Origin: Erysipelotrichaceae bacterium
Lineage (GTDB): Bacteria; Bacillota_I; Bacilli_A; Erysipelotrichales; Erysipelotrichaceae
Assembly (NCBI GenBank): GCA_017441765.1
Contig: JAFRVK010000022.1
Location: 1 to 45,699, forward strand
Reading direction: 5' to 3'
Length of the DNA stretch: 45,699 nt
Shown: in pieces, positions 1,798-39,160 of the stretch
Layout: each line of letters opens with the position of its first letter
Numbering within the stretch: position 1 is the first letter of the stretch
The notes under the pieces: generated by a model
Told to the model about the DNA's origin: nothing
Seen by the model: the letters and a program-made list of their open reading frames with translations, nothing else
Database searches by the model: none
Position numbers and translations under genes: made by a program

Positions 1798-2178
1798 ATG
1801 TTTAAAAATCCCGAAGAATTGAAATATGCGAAAACCCATGAATGGCTGAAAGAAGAAGATGGCGTCTATGTAATCGGTCTGACCGATTTTGCCCAGGATG
1901 CTTTAGGTGATGTCGTGTTTGTGAATCTGCCTGCCGTCGATGATGAAGTCAAAGCAGGAGAATCTTTAGGAGATATCGAATCCGTCAAGGCTGTCAGCGA
2001 TGTCTTCTCACCGGTTACCGGCAGAGTCGTCGAAGTCAACGAAGAAGTTGTCGATGATCCGGCACTGGTCAATACAGATCCATATGCCGCATGGCTGATC
2101 AAAGTCGCCGATGTGACGGAATTTGAAGAACTGCTGGATGCTGCGGCTTACGCTGAACACTGCGAACAGGAAGGCTGA
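1798..2178 (+). CDS. gcvH: Glycine cleavage system H protein (lipoyl carrier)
   Basis: A 126-residue lipoyl-domain protein that shuttles the aminomethyl group between the P, T and L proteins. The start is placed at ATG 1798 because AAGGAGGA lies just upstream; a longer reading from TTG 1780 would put the ribosome site inside the gene. The sequence shows the expected YAKTHEWLK opening, GDVVFVNLP, and the lipoylation motif ESVKAVSDV with Lys64 as the modified residue, followed by SPVTGRVVEVN. It sits 24 nt after gcvT and 2 nt before gcvPA. The lipoate ligase encoded four genes on is the likely enzyme that charges Lys64. Confidence 0.96.
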   Translation: MFKNPEELKYAKTHEWLKEEDGVYVIGLTDFAQDALGDVVFVNLPAVDDEVKAGESLGDIESVKAVSDVFSPVTGRVVEVNEEVVDDPALVNTDPYAAWLIKVADVTEFEELLDAAAYAEHCEQEG

Positions 2179-2180
2179 TC

Positions 2181-3485
2181 ATGGGCAATTATATCCCTGA
2201 TACAGCTGCCATCCAGAAAGAGATGCTGCAGGCGATCGGCAAAGAGTCGATCGATGCGCTCTATGAGGATGTGCCTTCCAATGTCCGTTTGAAGGAACTG
2301 CATATCCCTGAAGGAAAACCGGAAATGGCAGTCGCTTCGACGATGAAGAAGATCGCTTCTCAGAACAAGGTCTATGATTCCCTGTTTCGTGGAGCTGGCG
2401 CATATCGCCACTACATTCCTGCCATCGTCAAAGGCATCGTTTCCAAGGAGGAATTCCTGACTGCCTATACCCCATATCAGGCAGAGATCTCCCAGGGTGT
2501 GCTACAGTCCATTTTCGAATACCAGACGCAGATCTGCGAACTGACCGGACTGGATGTATCGAATGCTTCGGTATATGATGGAGCGGTCGCTGCTGCGGAA
2601 GCAGTCTTCATGACGATCGATAAGAATAAGACAGAAGTTTTGGTTTCCAATACGATCGATCCGCGCGTCCTGGAGGTCATTCAGACCTATGGCGAATCAC
2701 GCAATGTCAAGATTACAGTAACGGATGATCTCTATAAGACGGATGTGACGAAACTGTCGGATCTCATCAATGAGAATACCGCATGCGTACTGGTACAGAG
2801 CCCGAACTATTACGGGATCATCGAAGATGTCGAAGAGATCGTCAATATCGCCCATGAGAAGAAGATCAAGGTGATCGAAAGCGTCAATCCGATTTCTTTG
2901 GGTCTTTTGAAATCCCCTGGCGAACTGGGTGTCGATATCGCAGTTGGCGAGGGACAGCCGTTAGGCATGCCTCTGTCATGCGGAGGTCCATATCTTGGTT
3001 TCATGGCCACCACCAAAGAACTGACCAGAAAACTGCCCGGACGTATCGTCGGACAGACGACGGATCATGACGGACGCAGATGTTTCGTTCTGACCCTGCA
3101 GGCCCGTGAACAGCATATCCGCCGCGAGAAAGCCTCAAGCAATATCTGTTCCAATGAAGCATTATGTGCGATGACCGCATCGGTATATCTTGCAGCGGTA
3201 GGACCGGAAGGCCTTCATAAGGTGGCAAAGAACTGCTACGATCATGCGCATTATCTCAAAGATTCTCTGACATCCATCGGTTTCAAAGCAGTCAGCGATG
3301 AACCGTTCTTCCATGAGTTCCTGACTGATTCTCCGATCGATCCTGTCGTATTGGAAAAGAAACTCAAGGAGAAGGGGATCCTGATGGGTCTGGTCAAGGA
3401 GGATAAGATCCTTTGGTGCGCGACCGAACTGAACGACAAAGAAGATATCGATAATCTGATCGAAACGATCCGGGAGGTGATCTGA
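2181..3485 (+). CDS. gcvPA: Glycine dehydrogenase (decarboxylating) subunit 1
   Basis: N-terminal half of the two-subunit P protein found in many Bacillota and archaea; together with GcvPB it decarboxylates glycine and loads the aminomethyl group onto GcvH. It has 434 residues, close to the usual about 445. Recognisable blocks are FRGAGAYRHYIPAIVKG, EFLTAYTPYQAEISQG, the SNASVYDGA segment, and VGEGQPLGMPLSCGGPYLGF. This subunit carries no PLP lysine, as expected. Its TGA shares a base with the ATG of gcvPB, indicating translational coupling that would help 1:1 production of the two subunits. Confidence 0.95.
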   Translation: MGNYIPDTAAIQKEMLQAIGKESIDALYEDVPSNVRLKELHIPEGKPEMAVASTMKKIASQNKVYDSLFRGAGAYRHYIPAIVKGIVSKEEFLTAYTPYQAEISQGVLQSIFEYQTQICELTGLDVSNASVYDGAVAAAEAVFMTIDKNKTEVLVSNTIDPRVLEVIQTYGESRNVKITVTDDLYKTDVTKLSDLINENTACVLVQSPNYYGIIEDVEEIVNIAHEKKIKVIESVNPISLGLLKSPGELGVDIAVGEGQPLGMPLSCGGPYLGFMATTKELTRKLPGRIVGQTTDHDGRRCFVLTLQAREQHIRREKASSNICSNEALCAMTASVYLAAVGPEGLHKVAKNCYDHAHYLKDSLTSIGFKAVSDEPFFHEFLTDSPIDPVVLEKKLKEKGILMGLVKEDKILWCATELNDKEDIDNLIETIREVI

Positions 3486-4921
3486 TGAAACTGTTATTTG
3501 AATTGAGCTCAGCAGACAAGAAACTGGATCTGATTCCTGATTGCGATGTCAAGAGCTATGAACTTGAAGGCAAGTATCTTCGTAAAGAAAAACCGGGTCT
3601 GCCTGAATTGAGCGAAGTCGATCTGAGCAGACATTATACCGAACTGTGCAAGCAGACCTTCGGTGTCAATGACGGATTCTATCCGCTGGGTTCCTGCACG
3701 ATGAAATACAATCCGCGTGTCGATGAAGAAATGGCATCCTTACGTGATTTTACCGATGTCCATCCGTTGCAGGGAGAAGACAGCATCCAGGGTTCCCTGG
3801 AGGTTCTGTACCGTACCCAGGAACTTCTGTGTGAAATCACCGGCATGGATCAGATCAGCCTGCAACCTGCAGCAGGCGCGCATGGCGAATACACGGGACT
3901 GCTGCTGATCAGAAGATACCACCAAGCCCATCATGACGACGAGAGAGTCAATATCATCGTTCCAGATTCCGCTCATGGTACCAACCCTGCAAGTGCGGTC
4001 ATGGCCGGTTTCAAGGTCATCAATGTGCCTTCGAATGCGGATGGCGGTGTCGATCTTGATGAATTGAGAAAAGTCGTAGGAAAAGATACGGCAGGACTGA
4101 TGCTGACGAATCCGAATACCTTGGGACTGTTCGACCCGAATATCCTGGAAATCACGAAGATCATCCATGAAGCAGGAGGCCTGTGCTACTACGATGGCGC
4201 GAATCTGAACGCAATCATGGGTAGAGTCAGACCTGGCGATATGGGCTTCGACTGTATCCACCTGAATCTGCACAAGACCTTCGGTACCCCTCATGGCGGA
4301 GGCGGTCCGGGAAGCGGTCCGGTCGGATGCAAGGATTTCTTGAAGGATTATCTGCCGATGGAAACTGTTAAAAAGGAAGGTGACAGATATGTATTCTATA
4401 ACGCGGAACATTCTTTGGGCAGAGTCAAAAGCTATTACGGAAACTTCCTGGTCATCGTGAAAGCGTTGACTTATATCCTTACCTTAGGCAGAGAAGGCAT
4501 CATTGCATCCAGCGGCAAGGCCGTACTGAATGCCAATTACATGATGAACGCCCTTAAGAAGTGCTACGATGTCGCCTACGACAGGACCTGTATGCATGAG
4601 TTCGTCTTATGTCTGGAAGGAATGAAGAAAGAGACAGGTGTTTCCGCGATGGATATCGCCAAAGCTTCTCTGGACTATGGCGTCCATCCTCCGACAATGT
4701 ATTTCCCGTTGATCGTTCATGAAGCGCTGATGTTTGAGCCAACTGAAACCGAAAGCAAAGAGGTCATCGACAACGCCATCGCTGTCTATACGAAGCTCTA
4801 TGAACTTGCGCATGAAGATCCGGAATATCTGCATTCTGCTCCGCATGATCAGCCGATCGGCAGGCCGAACGAAACGGAAGCTGCCCGTAATCCGATCCTG
4901 CGTTATCAGAAAGAATGCTGA
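3485..4921 (+). CDS. gcvPB: Glycine dehydrogenase (decarboxylating) subunit 2
   Basis: Catalytic PLP-binding half of glycine decarboxylase, 478 residues. The PLP Schiff-base lysine is Lys264 in the LNLHKTFGTPHGGGGPG block; other family blocks are FYPLGSCTMKYNPR, DVHPLQ, LQPAAGAHGEYTGLL, PDSAHGTNPASA and HPPTMYFPL. The start codon overlaps the gcvPA stop by one base. The final codons overlap the start of the lipoate ligase gene by 7 nt. Expression therefore depends on the operon; no internal promoter was seen. Confidence 0.96.
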   Translation: MKLLFELSSADKKLDLIPDCDVKSYELEGKYLRKEKPGLPELSEVDLSRHYTELCKQTFGVNDGFYPLGSCTMKYNPRVDEEMASLRDFTDVHPLQGEDSIQGSLEVLYRTQELLCEITGMDQISLQPAAGAHGEYTGLLLIRRYHQAHHDDERVNIIVPDSAHGTNPASAVMAGFKVINVPSNADGGVDLDELRKVVGKDTAGLMLTNPNTLGLFDPNILEITKIIHEAGGLCYYDGANLNAIMGRVRPGDMGFDCIHLNLHKTFGTPHGGGGPGSGPVGCKDFLKDYLPMETVKKEGDRYVFYNAEHSLGRVKSYYGNFLVIVKALTYILTLGREGIIASSGKAVLNANYMMNALKKCYDVAYDRTCMHEFVLCLEGMKKETGVSAMDIAKASLDYGVHPPTMYFPLIVHEALMFEPTETESKEVIDNAIAVYTKLYELAHEDPEYLHSAPHDQPIGRPNETEAARNPILRYQKEC

Positions 4922-5874
4922 CTGAAGCATATGTAATTATTTCTTCTTCCAGAGTCCCGTTTCACAACCAGGCTCTGGAAGAATTTTTACTTGATCATGT
5001 CACGGATCATGACATCGTTTTATATCTGTGGCAGAACGAACGGACCGTCGTGATCGGCAAGAACCAGAACGCCTTTAATGAATGCAATATCGAAGCATTG
5101 AAAGAAGATTCCGGCCATCTGGCCCGCAGGCTTTCCGGCGGGGGAGCCGTTTACCATGATGATGGGAATCTGAATTTTACTTTTCTGGCTCATAAGAAAA
5201 ACTATGATGTTGCTACACAGACGGAAGTGATCCTGCAAGCGATGAAAGACCTGGGCTTTTCCGCGGAACGCAACGGACGGAACGACCTGCTGATCGAGGG
5301 ACGGAAGTTTTCCGGTCATGCCTACTACAGGCACAAGGACCGCTGTTTCCATCACGGGACATTGATGCTGGATGTGAATGCAGACGATCTTTCCAGATAC
5401 CTGCATGTATCCATGCTGAAACTGCAGGATAAGGGAGTCGATTCAGTCCGGTCGAGAGTGATCAATCTTCGGGATATCAGGAAAGAGCTGACGGTAGAAG
5501 AACTGAAAGATTCCCTGATCAGAGCATTTGGTAATGTCTATGCACTGCCTGTAAAGGAACTGAAAGAAGGAACCTTGGATTCCGATGAGATCGCTCTGCT
5601 GGAAGAGAAGTTTGCGAACGATGTCTGGCGCTACGGTGTCCGCAAGGAACACACATACCGGAAAGAAGCCCGTTTTCCATGGGGCACGATACAGTTGAGT
5701 TATGATCTGCAGGACGATGTGATCATCGATCCGGAAATCTATACGGATTCTCTGGATACAGAGAGTATTGAAGTCTTGCTGAAAATGATGCCGGGAAAGA
5801 GAATCAATGAAATCATTCCCGCAAACCAGATACAGAATGATATCATTTCTTTATTAACGGAGGATGAAATATGA
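4915..5874 (+). CDS. lplA: Lipoate-protein ligase A
   Basis: Activates free lipoate with ATP and transfers it to the lipoyl lysine of acceptor proteins, here most likely GcvH from the same operon. The 319-residue protein has the family signature RRLSGGGAVYHD at 71-82, followed by GNLNFTF, and the catalytic lysine Lys131 in GRKFSGHAYY; the C-terminal accessory domain follows from about residue 240. The ATG lies inside the last codons of gcvPB and the stop overlaps lpdA by 4 nt. No lipA/lipB biosynthesis genes are in the window, so scavenging of exogenous lipoate is a reasonable inference. Confidence 0.93.
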   Translation: MLTEAYVIISSSRVPFHNQALEEFLLDHVTDHDIVLYLWQNERTVVIGKNQNAFNECNIEALKEDSGHLARRLSGGGAVYHDDGNLNFTFLAHKKNYDVATQTEVILQAMKDLGFSAERNGRNDLLIEGRKFSGHAYYRHKDRCFHHGTLMLDVNADDLSRYLHVSMLKLQDKGVDSVRSRVINLRDIRKELTVEELKDSLIRAFGNVYALPVKELKEGTLDSDEIALLEEKFANDVWRYGVRKEHTYRKEARFPWGTIQLSYDLQDDVIIDPEIYTDSLDTESIEVLLKMMPGKRINEIIPANQIQNDIISLLTEDEI

Positions 5875-37201: not shown

Positions 37202-37719
37202 AGAAGTTTCTGATCCTGTTATTCTGTCTGTTTCTGTGCTCATGTCGTCCCGAGAGGGAAGACTATTTTGTTTTGGAATTCGATGACTATTCTCTGGCCG
37301 TCGGCTATGACGATATGAATTATCTGAAACTCGTATTTGAGGCGGATCTTCCCGAAGAGATGGAAGCGAATGAAGAAATGAAAGACATCGAAATGACTTT
37401 CTGGGGTAACTATTTTGCCGATATCGATCTCCGGAATCCGATCGATGAAACGATCAGTCCCGACGATGCAATACTGTCGGGTCTCGATCTGTATCTTCCG
37501 AATGCGGGCATGACGACATACAAACTGGATGGCATCGAACTGAGCAGCAGCGTCAAAGAAAACTGCAGAATGTTTGATGGGGAATATATCGAACGTAACG
37601 GATATGCCTGTCTGATTACCCGGCAGGTGGATCAAAAGCTGAATGTGGTGATCCTGCATGGGGATATATTGAACATGGATCAGGATGAATTGAGCCGGAT
37701 CGAAATCTATGTTGAGTGA
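37198..37719 (+). CDS. Predicted lipoprotein, unknown function
   Basis: 173 residues. Signal LILLFCLFLCSC with lipobox cysteine Cys16, so it is secreted and lipid-anchored. The mature part is acidic with several short beta-like stretches (YFVLEFDDYSLAVGYDD, LKLVFEADL, EMTFWGNYFADIDL) and resembles no family I know. It is inserted between DUF1667 and the glycerate kinase gene, overlapping both (4 and 11 nt), which is unexpected for a surface protein in a metabolic operon. Confidence 0.7.
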   Translation: MKKFLILLFCLFLCSCRPEREDYFVLEFDDYSLAVGYDDMNYLKLVFEADLPEEMEANEEMKDIEMTFWGNYFADIDLRNPIDETISPDDAILSGLDLYLPNAGMTTYKLDGIELSSSVKENCRMFDGEYIERNGYACLITRQVDQKLNVVILHGDILNMDQDELSRIEIYVE

Positions 37720-38923
37720 TGCATTGAAGATCTGCCTGGGAGCGATCGATGCTTCGCTGCCGAAACAGAGTGTAAAGGATACATTATCAAAATTGCAGAT
37801 AAGCGGCGATATCTATCTGGTTGCGGTGGGCAAGGCGTCTTTTGCGATGGCAGAAGCAGCTGGTGAACTGCTGAATATCAAAAGGGGTATCGTTTTAAGC
37901 AAGTATGGCCATATCAAAGGCACACTGCCTGATATCACATCATATGAAGCGGGACATCCCGTTACGGATGAAAACGGCATTCTGGCAACACGGGAGATCA
38001 TCCGGATGTGCTCCGATCTGAAGGAAGAAGACAATGTGCTTTTCCTGTTATCAGGAGGAGCCAGCGCTTTGTTTGAGGAGCCGCTGATTCCTTTGAAAGA
38101 ACTGCAGGATCTGAACGAACAGATGCTGAGAAAAGGCCTGGATATCAATGAGATCAATACGCTGCGCAAACGGCTTTCCAAAGTCAAGGGCGGACGCTTC
38201 TATCAGCTCTGCCAGCCTGCCAGGGTCTATTCACTGATCCTCAGCGATGTTCTGGGAGACCGCTTGGACAGCATCGGTTCAGGGCCGACTGTTCAGGATC
38301 ATTCCAAAAGAGAGGAAGCTCTTTCGATCATCGGCAAGTATGGCCTTGTCCTGTCCAAACAAGCCATGGAATGCATCCATAATTCTGATTCTATTCCGGT
38401 CGATGAGAAGAATGTTTCTATCATCGGTTCGGTGAAACTGCTGGCACAGAAAGCCATCGGTATCGCAAAGGATCTTGGCTACAGGCCCGTTCTGCTTAGC
38501 GATCATATCGCCATGGAAGCAAAAGAAGCGGGCGATTACCTGTACAGCGAGATTCAATGCCATCGCGGACAGGGGAAGATCGCGTTGATCATGACCGGAG
38601 AGACGGTAGTTCATGTGAAAGGAAATGGCCTAGGTGGACGCAATCAGGAGCTGGTTCTTTCACAGGTCGCACACCTGAGAGGCATGGACGGTGTCCTAAT
38701 CGTGTCACTGGGCTCGGATGGCACGGATGGGCCGACGGATGCAGCAGGAGCCTATGCTGATAGGTATACCCATGACAGGTTCATTGAGAGTGGAATCGAC
38801 TATCCGGCTATGCTGGAGAACAACGACTCCTATCACGCTTTGAAGCAGATCGATGCCCTGATCAAGACAGGTCCGACCGGAACCAATGTGAACGACATCA
38901 CGATCGCCCTGATTGAACAATGA
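37709..38923 (+). CDS. Glycerate 2-kinase (DUF4147/MOFRL type)
   Basis: 404 residues of the GckA/type-2 glycerate kinase family: VAVGKASFAMAEAAGE, YEAGHPVTDENG, LFLLSGGASALFEEP, INTLRKRLSKVKGG, ILSDVLGDRLDSIGSGPT in the N-terminal domain, and GETVVHVKGNGLGGRNQELVL, GSDGTDGPTDAAGAYAD in the MOFRL domain. It phosphorylates glycerate to 2-phosphoglycerate. Together with the GlpA-like enzymes this suggests handling of glycerol-derived three-carbon compounds; alternatively it may take glycerate made from serine or hydroxypyruvate. Confidence 0.92.
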   Translation: MLSDALKICLGAIDASLPKQSVKDTLSKLQISGDIYLVAVGKASFAMAEAAGELLNIKRGIVLSKYGHIKGTLPDITSYEAGHPVTDENGILATREIIRMCSDLKEEDNVLFLLSGGASALFEEPLIPLKELQDLNEQMLRKGLDINEINTLRKRLSKVKGGRFYQLCQPARVYSLILSDVLGDRLDSIGSGPTVQDHSKREEALSIIGKYGLVLSKQAMECIHNSDSIPVDEKNVSIIGSVKLLAQKAIGIAKDLGYRPVLLSDHIAMEAKEAGDYLYSEIQCHRGQGKIALIMTGETVVHVKGNGLGGRNQELVLSQVAHLRGMDGVLIVSLGSDGTDGPTDAAGAYADRYTHDRFIESGIDYPAMLENNDSYHALKQIDALIKTGPTGTNVNDITIALIEQ

Positions 38924-38925
38924 TA

Positions 38926-38934
38926 TGCTATAAT
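38926..38934 (+). promoter_or_regulatory. Extended -10 promoter of the small RNA/peptide unit
   Basis: TGCTATAAT, a perfect -10 with TGn extension, three bases after the glycerate kinase stop. Predicted start 38941, the first A of AAGGAGG. Confidence 0.75.
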
Positions 38935-38950
38935 GAAATAAAGGAGGTAC

Positions 38951-38998
38951 ATGGTTATGAAGACATTGTACATATCTCCTGATTACAGATATCGCTGA
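38951..38998 (+). CDS. 15-residue ORF inside the small RNA
   Basis: MVMKTLYISPDYRYR. ATG lies 4 nt after a consensus AAGGAGG; ATG 38957 (MKTLYISPDYRYR) gives better spacing (10 nt) and may be the true start. The peptide is basic with three Tyr and no hydrophobic stretch, unlike type I toxins. Whether it is made, acts as a leader, or is only the RNA's by-product is unknown. Confidence 0.45.
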   Translation: MVMKTLYISPDYRYR

Positions 38999-39014
38999 TA
39001 TCTGTTCCATACAT

Positions 39015-39036
39015 GCAAGCTCAGGCTTGCTTTTTT
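39015..39036 (+). terminator. Terminator of the small RNA unit
   Basis: Stem GCAAGC / GCTTGC, loop TCAG, followed by TTTTTT. Confidence 0.85.
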
Positions 39037-39098
39037 GGTTGCAAACAACAGAAATCATTTGTTGTGACCTGGAATTAAGAAAAGTTTAGTAGATAATT

Positions 39099-39120
39099 AA
39101 GAGGAACTTTGTTTCCTCTT
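39099..39120. repeat. Inverted repeat over the PASTA-operon promoter
   Basis: Perfect 8-bp arms AAGAGGAA / TTCCTCTT with a 6-nt loop, ending 4 nt before the TATAAT at 39125. No T-run follows, so it looks like an operator rather than a terminator. Confidence 0.6.
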
Positions 39121-39124
39121 GACT

Positions 39125-39130
39125 TATAAT
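39125..39130 (+). promoter_or_regulatory. -10 box of the PASTA-ABC operon
   Basis: TATAAT with predicted start about 39137 and leader of about 24 nt carrying AAGGAGG. The -35 region is taken up by the inverted repeat. Confidence 0.6.
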
Positions 39131-39160
39131 AGGAATGATAAGGCAAAGGAGGATGGAACG

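What the first reader, a model, noticed from the sequence alone, without database searches (positions are those of the whole stretch)
38926..39036. Self-contained small RNA/peptide unit after the glycerate kinase gene
Seen: a perfect extended -10, a transcript predicted to begin at AAGGAGG, a 15-codon ORF, three hairpins and a U6 terminator within 111 bp. The ribosome site is in stem 1 opposite CTCCT, so translation and a possible CTCCT seed against other Shine-Dalgarno sequences would exclude each other. Known: C-rich small RNAs in Bacillota block ribosome sites. Inference: a dual-function regulator or a switchable leader.
Basis: partly seen in the sequence, partly recalled or inferred. Interest (0 to 1): 0.7.

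Follow-up and report, generated by a model that had tools for sequence, protein, structure and literature searches.

The report
Self-masking small RNA, gut Erysipelotrichaceae
Fourteen of 36 species genomes of one gut-bacterium genus carry the same short predicted small-RNA gene, which keeps a ribosome-binding site and a start codon but not a fixed peptide; the RNA is predicted to hide that site by folding on itself, so it likely acts as a ribosome-gated regulatory RNA with targets still unknown.

Summary
The unit at 38926-39036 recurs, one convincing copy per genome, in 14 of 36 genomes of the same Erysipelotrichaceae genus, plus a truncated copy in another genus (L066). Conserved parts: an extended -10 (13 of 14), GGAGG 6-9 nt after the -10, ATG 8-9 nt after GGAGG (14 of 14), an SD/anti-SD stem, a stem 2 with compensatory changes, and a GCAAG terminator. 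Neighbouring genes differ, so it is likely a stand-alone unit, usually nested at the 3' end of some gene. The coding half fails: the peptide is not conserved, four members carry a frame-shifting gap, and substitutions show no codon-like pattern. The start codon is kept, the peptide is not. The CUCCU 'seed' drifts and one test found no shared target. A switchable leader is unlikely: downstream genes differ and are convergent in 5 of 13. Best reading: a lineage-specific small RNA whose SD is predicted to be open only until its anti-SD is transcribed. Transcription, translation and trans-targets are untested.

The parts
38926..38934 (+). extended -10 promoter element TGCTATAAT (no recognisable -35)
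   Evidence: TGNTANNNT 7-9 nt before GGAGG in 13 of 14 members; the 14th (G013) has TATAAT without TG, 6 nt before; best -35 has 2-5 mismatches of 6 in the 13 scored
38941..39036 (+). predicted 96-nt transcript (small RNA)
   Evidence: fold, z -4.5; R3 hit 38941-39030 E 1.3e-15; one full copy in own genome (seven other matches are fragments of at most 31 nt)
38943..38947 (+). GGAGG Shine-Dalgarno sequence at the predicted 5' end
   Evidence: present in 14 of 14 full-length members; predicted unpaired 0.00 in the full RNA of G000, 0.79 before the anti-SD is made
38942..38980 (+). stem 1: AGGAG/CTCCT and GTACA/TGTAC, start codon in the loop
   Evidence: outer five pairs 94.0% and inner four 69.6% of cells paired over 15 rows, outer changes mainly GC to GU
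38957..38998 (+). conserved mini-ORF, 13 codons (MKTLYISPDYRYR), stop overlapping the loop of stem 2
   Evidence: ATG 8-9 nt after GGAGG in 14 of 14; peptide not conserved
38976..38980 (+). anti-SD CTCCT
   Evidence: differs in relatives (CCTTT, TCCTT, CCTCG, CTCCC)
38985..39005 (+). stem 2 (ACAGATATC/GATATCTGT)
   Evidence: 4 pairs with changes on both sides, 94.5% of cells paired over 15 rows
39006..39014 (+). linker TCCATACAT, unpaired in the predicted fold (commonest form in relatives CCATATAC)
   Evidence: CAT missing in G013, G015 and G032
39015..39036 (+). intrinsic terminator, GCAAGC-TCAG-GCTTGC and T6
   Evidence: the five pairs GCAAG/CTTGC formed in 100% of cells over 15 rows
37709..38923 (+). 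upstream gene, MOFRL/DUF4147 (glycerate-kinase type); its stop lies 19 nt before GGAGG, so its mRNA is predicted to end at the same terminator

Best explanation
This is a conserved and likely stand-alone unit that is predicted to be transcribed as a roughly 96-nt small RNA starting at its own Shine-Dalgarno sequence, and that likely works as a ribosome-gated regulatory RNA: while the 5' end is being made the site would be open, and once the anti-SD is transcribed stem 1 would shut it. A ribosome that loads in time would translate 8-17 codons, hold stem 1 open and, in 11 of 15 copies, stop in the loop of stem 2, so that its 3' arm and the linker would be freed; without a ribosome the RNA would fold into three closed hairpins. 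Shown: the unit, its conservation, the covariation in stem 2, the conserved SD-ATG, the non-conserved peptide and the changing neighbours. Predicted: promoter, transcript ends, folding. Inferred: that the act of translation rather than the peptide matters, and that the RNA acts in trans.
For: One convincing copy per genome in 14 of 36 genus genomes, E 6e-17 to 9e-8. Extended -10 in 13 of 14. ATG at 8-9 nt in 14 of 14, while the 15 flanking positions are on average 46% identical (chance about 0.05 per sequence, sequences not independent). SD mean unpaired probability 0.07 in the full RNA against 0.72 just before the anti-SD, 14 members. Stem 2: 4 pairs changed on both sides; whole-structure covariation score 0.202, reached by 0 of 500 shuffles, slid controls at most 0.085. 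No codon-like pattern, one-base gaps in four members shift the frame. Stand-alone: upstream genes differ (MOFRL kinase, NUDIX, MazG-like, hydrolase, 5'-nucleotidase, ECF transporter) and downstream genes are convergent in 5 of 13. rpoB tree of 27 genomes: 13 members, 3 label changes against a shuffled mean of 9.2.
Against: No RNA-seq, ribosome profiling or target data. No shared target was found in the one test made. The freed-segment step rests on folding logic alone, and the linker is not constant (CAT missing in G013, G015, G032). In G013, G027 and G032 the ORF stops before the anti-SD, so there a ribosome would not reach stem 2; in G029 it stops beyond stem 2. In G028 and G013 the SD is predicted mostly paired even before the anti-SD (0.31, 0.30 unpaired), and in G013 and G027 the ATG is not free (0.01, 0.35). 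The inner half of stem 1 pairs in only 69.6% of cells. Shuffles reached the count of pairs changed on both sides in 15 of 500 and the count of pair types in 382 of 500. 22 of 36 genus genomes gave no convincing match; some are incomplete, but G001 (99% complete) and G007 (97%) also lack it, so it is not essential in the genus, and starred branches force at least three gains or losses.
Confidence: 0.45

Rival explanations
1. A plain trans-acting small RNA in which CUCCU pairs with Shine-Dalgarno sequences of other mRNAs, like C-rich small RNAs of Bacillota; the SD and ORF are by-products of masking that seed.
For: A pyrimidine-rich anti-SD is aligned in all 15 members; the RNA is structured and likely stand-alone. 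TAATCAGGAG occurs 15 times outside the unit in 6 genomes, against 2 for the same pattern read backwards, although the reversed pattern is not SD-like and so is a loose control.
Against: The anti-SD is paired in the predicted fold (mean unpaired 0.20) and changes (CUCCU, CCUUU, UCCUU, CCUCG, CUCCC). The 15 outside sites are spread 0 to 8 per genome, 4 of 15 lie before an ORF of over 100 codons, and no gene recurs among them by eye. It does not explain the ATG kept in 14 of 14.
Confidence: 0.17
2. A 3'-end module: its main role is to end and protect the mRNA of the upstream gene, the SD and mini-ORF acting as a ribosome landing place near the 3' end, as stabilising SD sequences are reported to do at 5' ends (STAB-SD, seen only as a reference title and passages on ribosome protection).
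For: In 12 of 14 members a same-strand open frame ends 7-28 nt before GGAGG, which leaves no room for another terminator, and in G032 it runs into the unit.
Against: An extended -10 stands right before GGAGG in 13 of 14, which a 3' UTR does not need; G027 lies 255 nt from its upstream gene; only one copy per genome.
Confidence: 0.15
3. A dual-function RNA or tiny gene whose 13-residue peptide is the active product, with translation kept low by stem 1.
For: SD, ATG and an in-frame stop in 14 of 14; N-terminal MKVK[DY]IS recurs in part of the family; G011 against G015 has 5 synonymous and 1 non-synonymous codon changes.
Against: Among equal-length ORFs in the same frame, 15 of 18 pairs have more non-synonymous than synonymous changed codons; four members are shifted by one base; peptides such as MKVKYISPDYRYR, MYLERNKI and MERKNRNR show no common sequence.
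Confidence: 0.1
4. A switchable leader (attenuator, riboswitch or thermometer) of the downstream gene.
For: The order hairpin, mini-ORF, terminator resembles uORF attenuators; the downstream gene is on the same strand in 8 of 13, and close by in G026 and G033.
Against: The downstream gene is convergent in 5 of 13 and differs among most of the rest. The minimum-energy folds show the terminator intact and no rival pairing for it (alternative structures were not searched). In the window the next gene starts 124 nt after the T-run, with a TATAAT of its own upstream.
Confidence: 0.06

Closest known systems
Dual-function RNAs (SgrS/SgrT, SR1/SR1P, VcdRP)
   Same: a small RNA with a short ORF
   Different: here the peptide is not conserved and no base-pairing target is known; compared with passages of PMC8672173
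Streptococcal csRNAs (RF02379)
   Same: small, terminator-ended, with anti-SD and, in most members, CAU stretches
   Different: csRNA anti-SD lies in unpaired regions and their promoters carry TTTAAG-N5-TTTAAG (passages of PMC3091779); here the anti-SD is predicted paired and no such repeat occurs. Rfam's only csRNA hit is sub-threshold (19.8 bits against 57), on the other strand at 39043-39123, outside the unit
Type I toxin mRNAs with SD-sequestering hairpins (aapA1/aapA3)
   Same: SD trapped by an anti-SD, with folding order during transcription mattering (passages of PMC6733600)
   Different: no conserved peptide; an antisense antitoxin was not looked for
fthC motif (uORF candidate, Streptococcus)
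   Same: three hairpins, the third terminator-like, SD-like region and AUG, stop codon often in P2 (passages of PMC11109978)
   Different: the fthC motif lies upstream of one constant gene; this unit has no constant downstream gene
3'-UTR small RNAs with an internal promoter
   Same: nested at the 3' end of an unrelated gene and sharing its terminator
   Different: the upstream gene changes between lineages; only search listings were seen

Membership tests
dual-function RNA | stand-alone small RNA | tested here: inconclusive
   conserved promoter-like site and terminator, changing neighbours; transcription itself could not be tested
dual-function RNA | conserved functional peptide | tested here: not met
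   no codon-like pattern, frame shifts
dual-function RNA | base-pairing with target mRNAs | tested here: inconclusive
   no shared target for one 10-nt seed in 6 genomes; linker and imperfect pairing not tested
streptococcal csRNA | CiaR repeat TTTAAG-N5-TTTAAG before the -10 | tested here: not met
   at best 4 mismatches of 12 in 80 nt upstream, 14 members
streptococcal csRNA | anti-SD in an unpaired region | tested here: not met
   anti-SD mean unpaired probability 0.20 over 14 members (prediction)
uORF attenuator / cis-leader | constant downstream gene on the same strand | tested here: not met
   convergent in 5 of 13, mostly different genes in the others
type I toxin mRNA | conserved toxic peptide (feature recalled) | tested here: not met
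   no conserved peptide; toxicity not testable here
any Rfam 15 family | score at or above the gathering threshold | tested here: not met
   (one search lists 7 hits at E up to 10, all below gathering)

The most novel reading that the evidence does not exclude
A class of small RNA whose activity is gated by the act of translating a meaningless mini-ORF: the ribosome is the ligand, the start codon is conserved and the peptide is free to drift, so the RNA would read out free-ribosome supply and convert it into exposure of a regulatory 3' segment.
Probability: 0.25. Interest if true: 0.8.

Novelty: new variant of a known kind. Interest (0 to 1): 0.55.

Why it matters
If true, it would separate translation from coding inside a small RNA: a conserved start codon without a conserved peptide is a clean genetic signature of ribosome sensing. 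The signature could be searched for in other bacteria, where such units may be filed as spurious small ORFs or missed. No Rfam 15 family covers the unit, and one literature search for small RNAs with Erysipelotrichaceae found no description of it, so it looks like an undescribed RNA family in little-studied gut bacteria.

Tried and rejected
Repeat or mobile element: rejected, one full copy in the own genome and one convincing copy per genome. Known RNA family: none at gathering score. Wider spread: 272 genomes of the family and 315 of the order with model R2 and an even draw of 395 from the class with R3 gave no further convincing member except L066 (stricter filters above 40 genomes); L068 and L069 were judged chance by eye because no terminator follows. 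R1 matches with E above 0.01 (L052-L065) were rejected by eye, several being stem-2-like palindromes, and R3 did not recover them; three R3 matches at E 0.6-1.0 (G000 C17, G020, G023) were left out as chance. Targets of the anti-SD patch: none shared. Absence in G005, sister of G033: its YjbR gene lies near a contig end, so absence there cannot be told from an assembly break. A guess that the sequence at that end is a group II intron got no support from Rfam (a literature search on such introns found nothing) and is dropped. The linker-2 column is unreliable (its script misplaced the stem-2 end in several rows) and is not used. In the rpoB tree, 9 of 36 genomes are missing: five without a match, G019, and G015, G020 and G021, whose short pieces I left out.

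Full report
What is there. The stretch 38926-39036 reads as described: an extended -10 just after the stop of the upstream gene, a predicted transcript that begins at the Shine-Dalgarno sequence, a short ORF, two hairpins and a terminator. The fold (-31.7 kcal/mol) is lower than all 200 dinucleotide shuffles. The start codon to keep is 38957, not 38951: an ATG 3 nt after GGAGG occurs in 2 of 14 members, the one at 8-9 nt in 14 of 14.

Family. BLAST of 101 genomes (own included) gave strong matches in same-genus genomes, E 7e-74 to 9e-14 for four of them and 2.5e-7 to 0.004 for four more that proved real; the many other hits at E up to 1 are short. A covariance model from six sequences gave 13 convincing members in 36 genus genomes (20 of 36 had some match at E up to 1). 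A second model added G013 and a copy cut off at a contig end in G162, a genome of another genus with 7% stated contamination. A third, with the terminator, found 14 of 36, one convincing copy each. The order search covered 315 genomes and a draw from the class 395, with no further convincing member. On an rpoB tree of the 27 genomes with enough sequence, the 13 members present lie in one region with 3 label changes against 9.2 in shuffles; starred branches force at least 3, so losses, gains or assembly gaps must be assumed.

Structure. On 15 aligned members, stem 2 keeps pairing through changes on both sides at four pairs, the five terminator pairs form in every row, and the SD/anti-SD pairs form in 94.0% of cells; GGAGG itself is fixed and its partners mostly move between C and U, which keeps the pair. 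No shuffle reaches the covariation score or the percentage paired, and slid controls are far lower. Two of the five measures are weaker: 15 of 500 shuffles reach the number of pairs changed on both sides, and 382 of 500 the number of pair types. The inner half of stem 1 pairs in 69.6% of cells only.

Coding. Nine members have ORFs of equal length (36 pairs). Eighteen of these pairs share a frame (G000, G003, G006, G011, G015, G017 among themselves; G009, G033, G162 among themselves): 15 of 18 have more non-synonymous than synonymous changed codons, one is even, and two have fewer (G011/G015 5 against 1, G000/G015 4 against 3). The other 18 pairs compare shifted frames without a gap and say little. 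No expected ratio was computed. Four members (G009, G029, G033, G162) carry a one-base gap that shifts the frame, and in G013, G027 and G032 the stop lies just before the anti-SD. The peptide is therefore not what is kept. SD and ATG are: 14 of 14, with flanks 46% identical on average. By my reading of the sequences, the stop overlaps the loop of stem 2 in 11 of 15.

Timing. The SD is on average 7% unpaired in the whole RNA but 72% unpaired in the piece made before the anti-SD, over 14 members, with G028 and G013 as exceptions; the start codon is at least 70% unpaired in the whole RNA in 12 of 14. This is equilibrium folding of fixed pieces, not a kinetic simulation.

Context. A same-strand open frame ends 7-28 nt before GGAGG in 12 of 14; in G032 it runs into the unit and in G027 it ends 255 nt away. 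The upstream genes searched are a MOFRL-type kinase, NUDIX, MazG-like, alpha/beta hydrolase, 5'-nucleotidase and ECF transporter component (those of G013 and G032 were not searched), so no partner is constant. Some lineages share neighbours (NUDIX, MazG-like, YjbR), which suggests a stable locus with local turnover. The downstream gene is convergent in 5 of 13. This argues for a stand-alone unit and against a leader.

Function. I commit to ribosome gating with action in trans, at 0.45 for the whole chain; that the unit is a real conserved RNA gene I hold near 0.9. The proposed CUCCU seed was tested by one 10-nt pattern in six genomes: 22 sites, 7 of them in the unit itself; of the other 15, four precede an ORF of over 100 codons and no gene recurs by eye. 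The pattern read backwards has 2 sites in the same genomes, so the 15 are an excess, but an SD-like sequence is expected to exceed its reverse. Shorter or imperfect pairing was not tested.

Print. A search for Erysipelotrichaceae with small-RNA terms listed two papers; passages of one were read and describe no such unit, the other is known only from its listing. Other papers were seen as passages or listings; one search found none.

Noticed in passing
window 39061-39160: The region before the PASTA gene holds an inverted repeat (AAGAGGAAC..GTTTCCTCTT) that is also present before the PASTA gene in G011 and G003, where the small RNA lies elsewhere.
   Followed up: partly
L165 (G005), near 2000-2130: In the sister species of G033 the contig ends just upstream of YjbR, where the small RNA would be expected, in sequence unlike G033; Rfam names no family for it.
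   Followed up: partly
L104 (G162) 1950-5450: The truncated copy in another genus sits next to integrase-like and NERD-like genes (names recalled from sequence, not searched), perhaps a mobile element or a contaminating contig.
   Followed up: no
terminator arm, window 39015-39019, and all members: GCAAG is present in 14 of 15 members (GCAGG in G028) across lineages that otherwise diverged, unusual for a plain terminator and unexplained.
   Followed up: no
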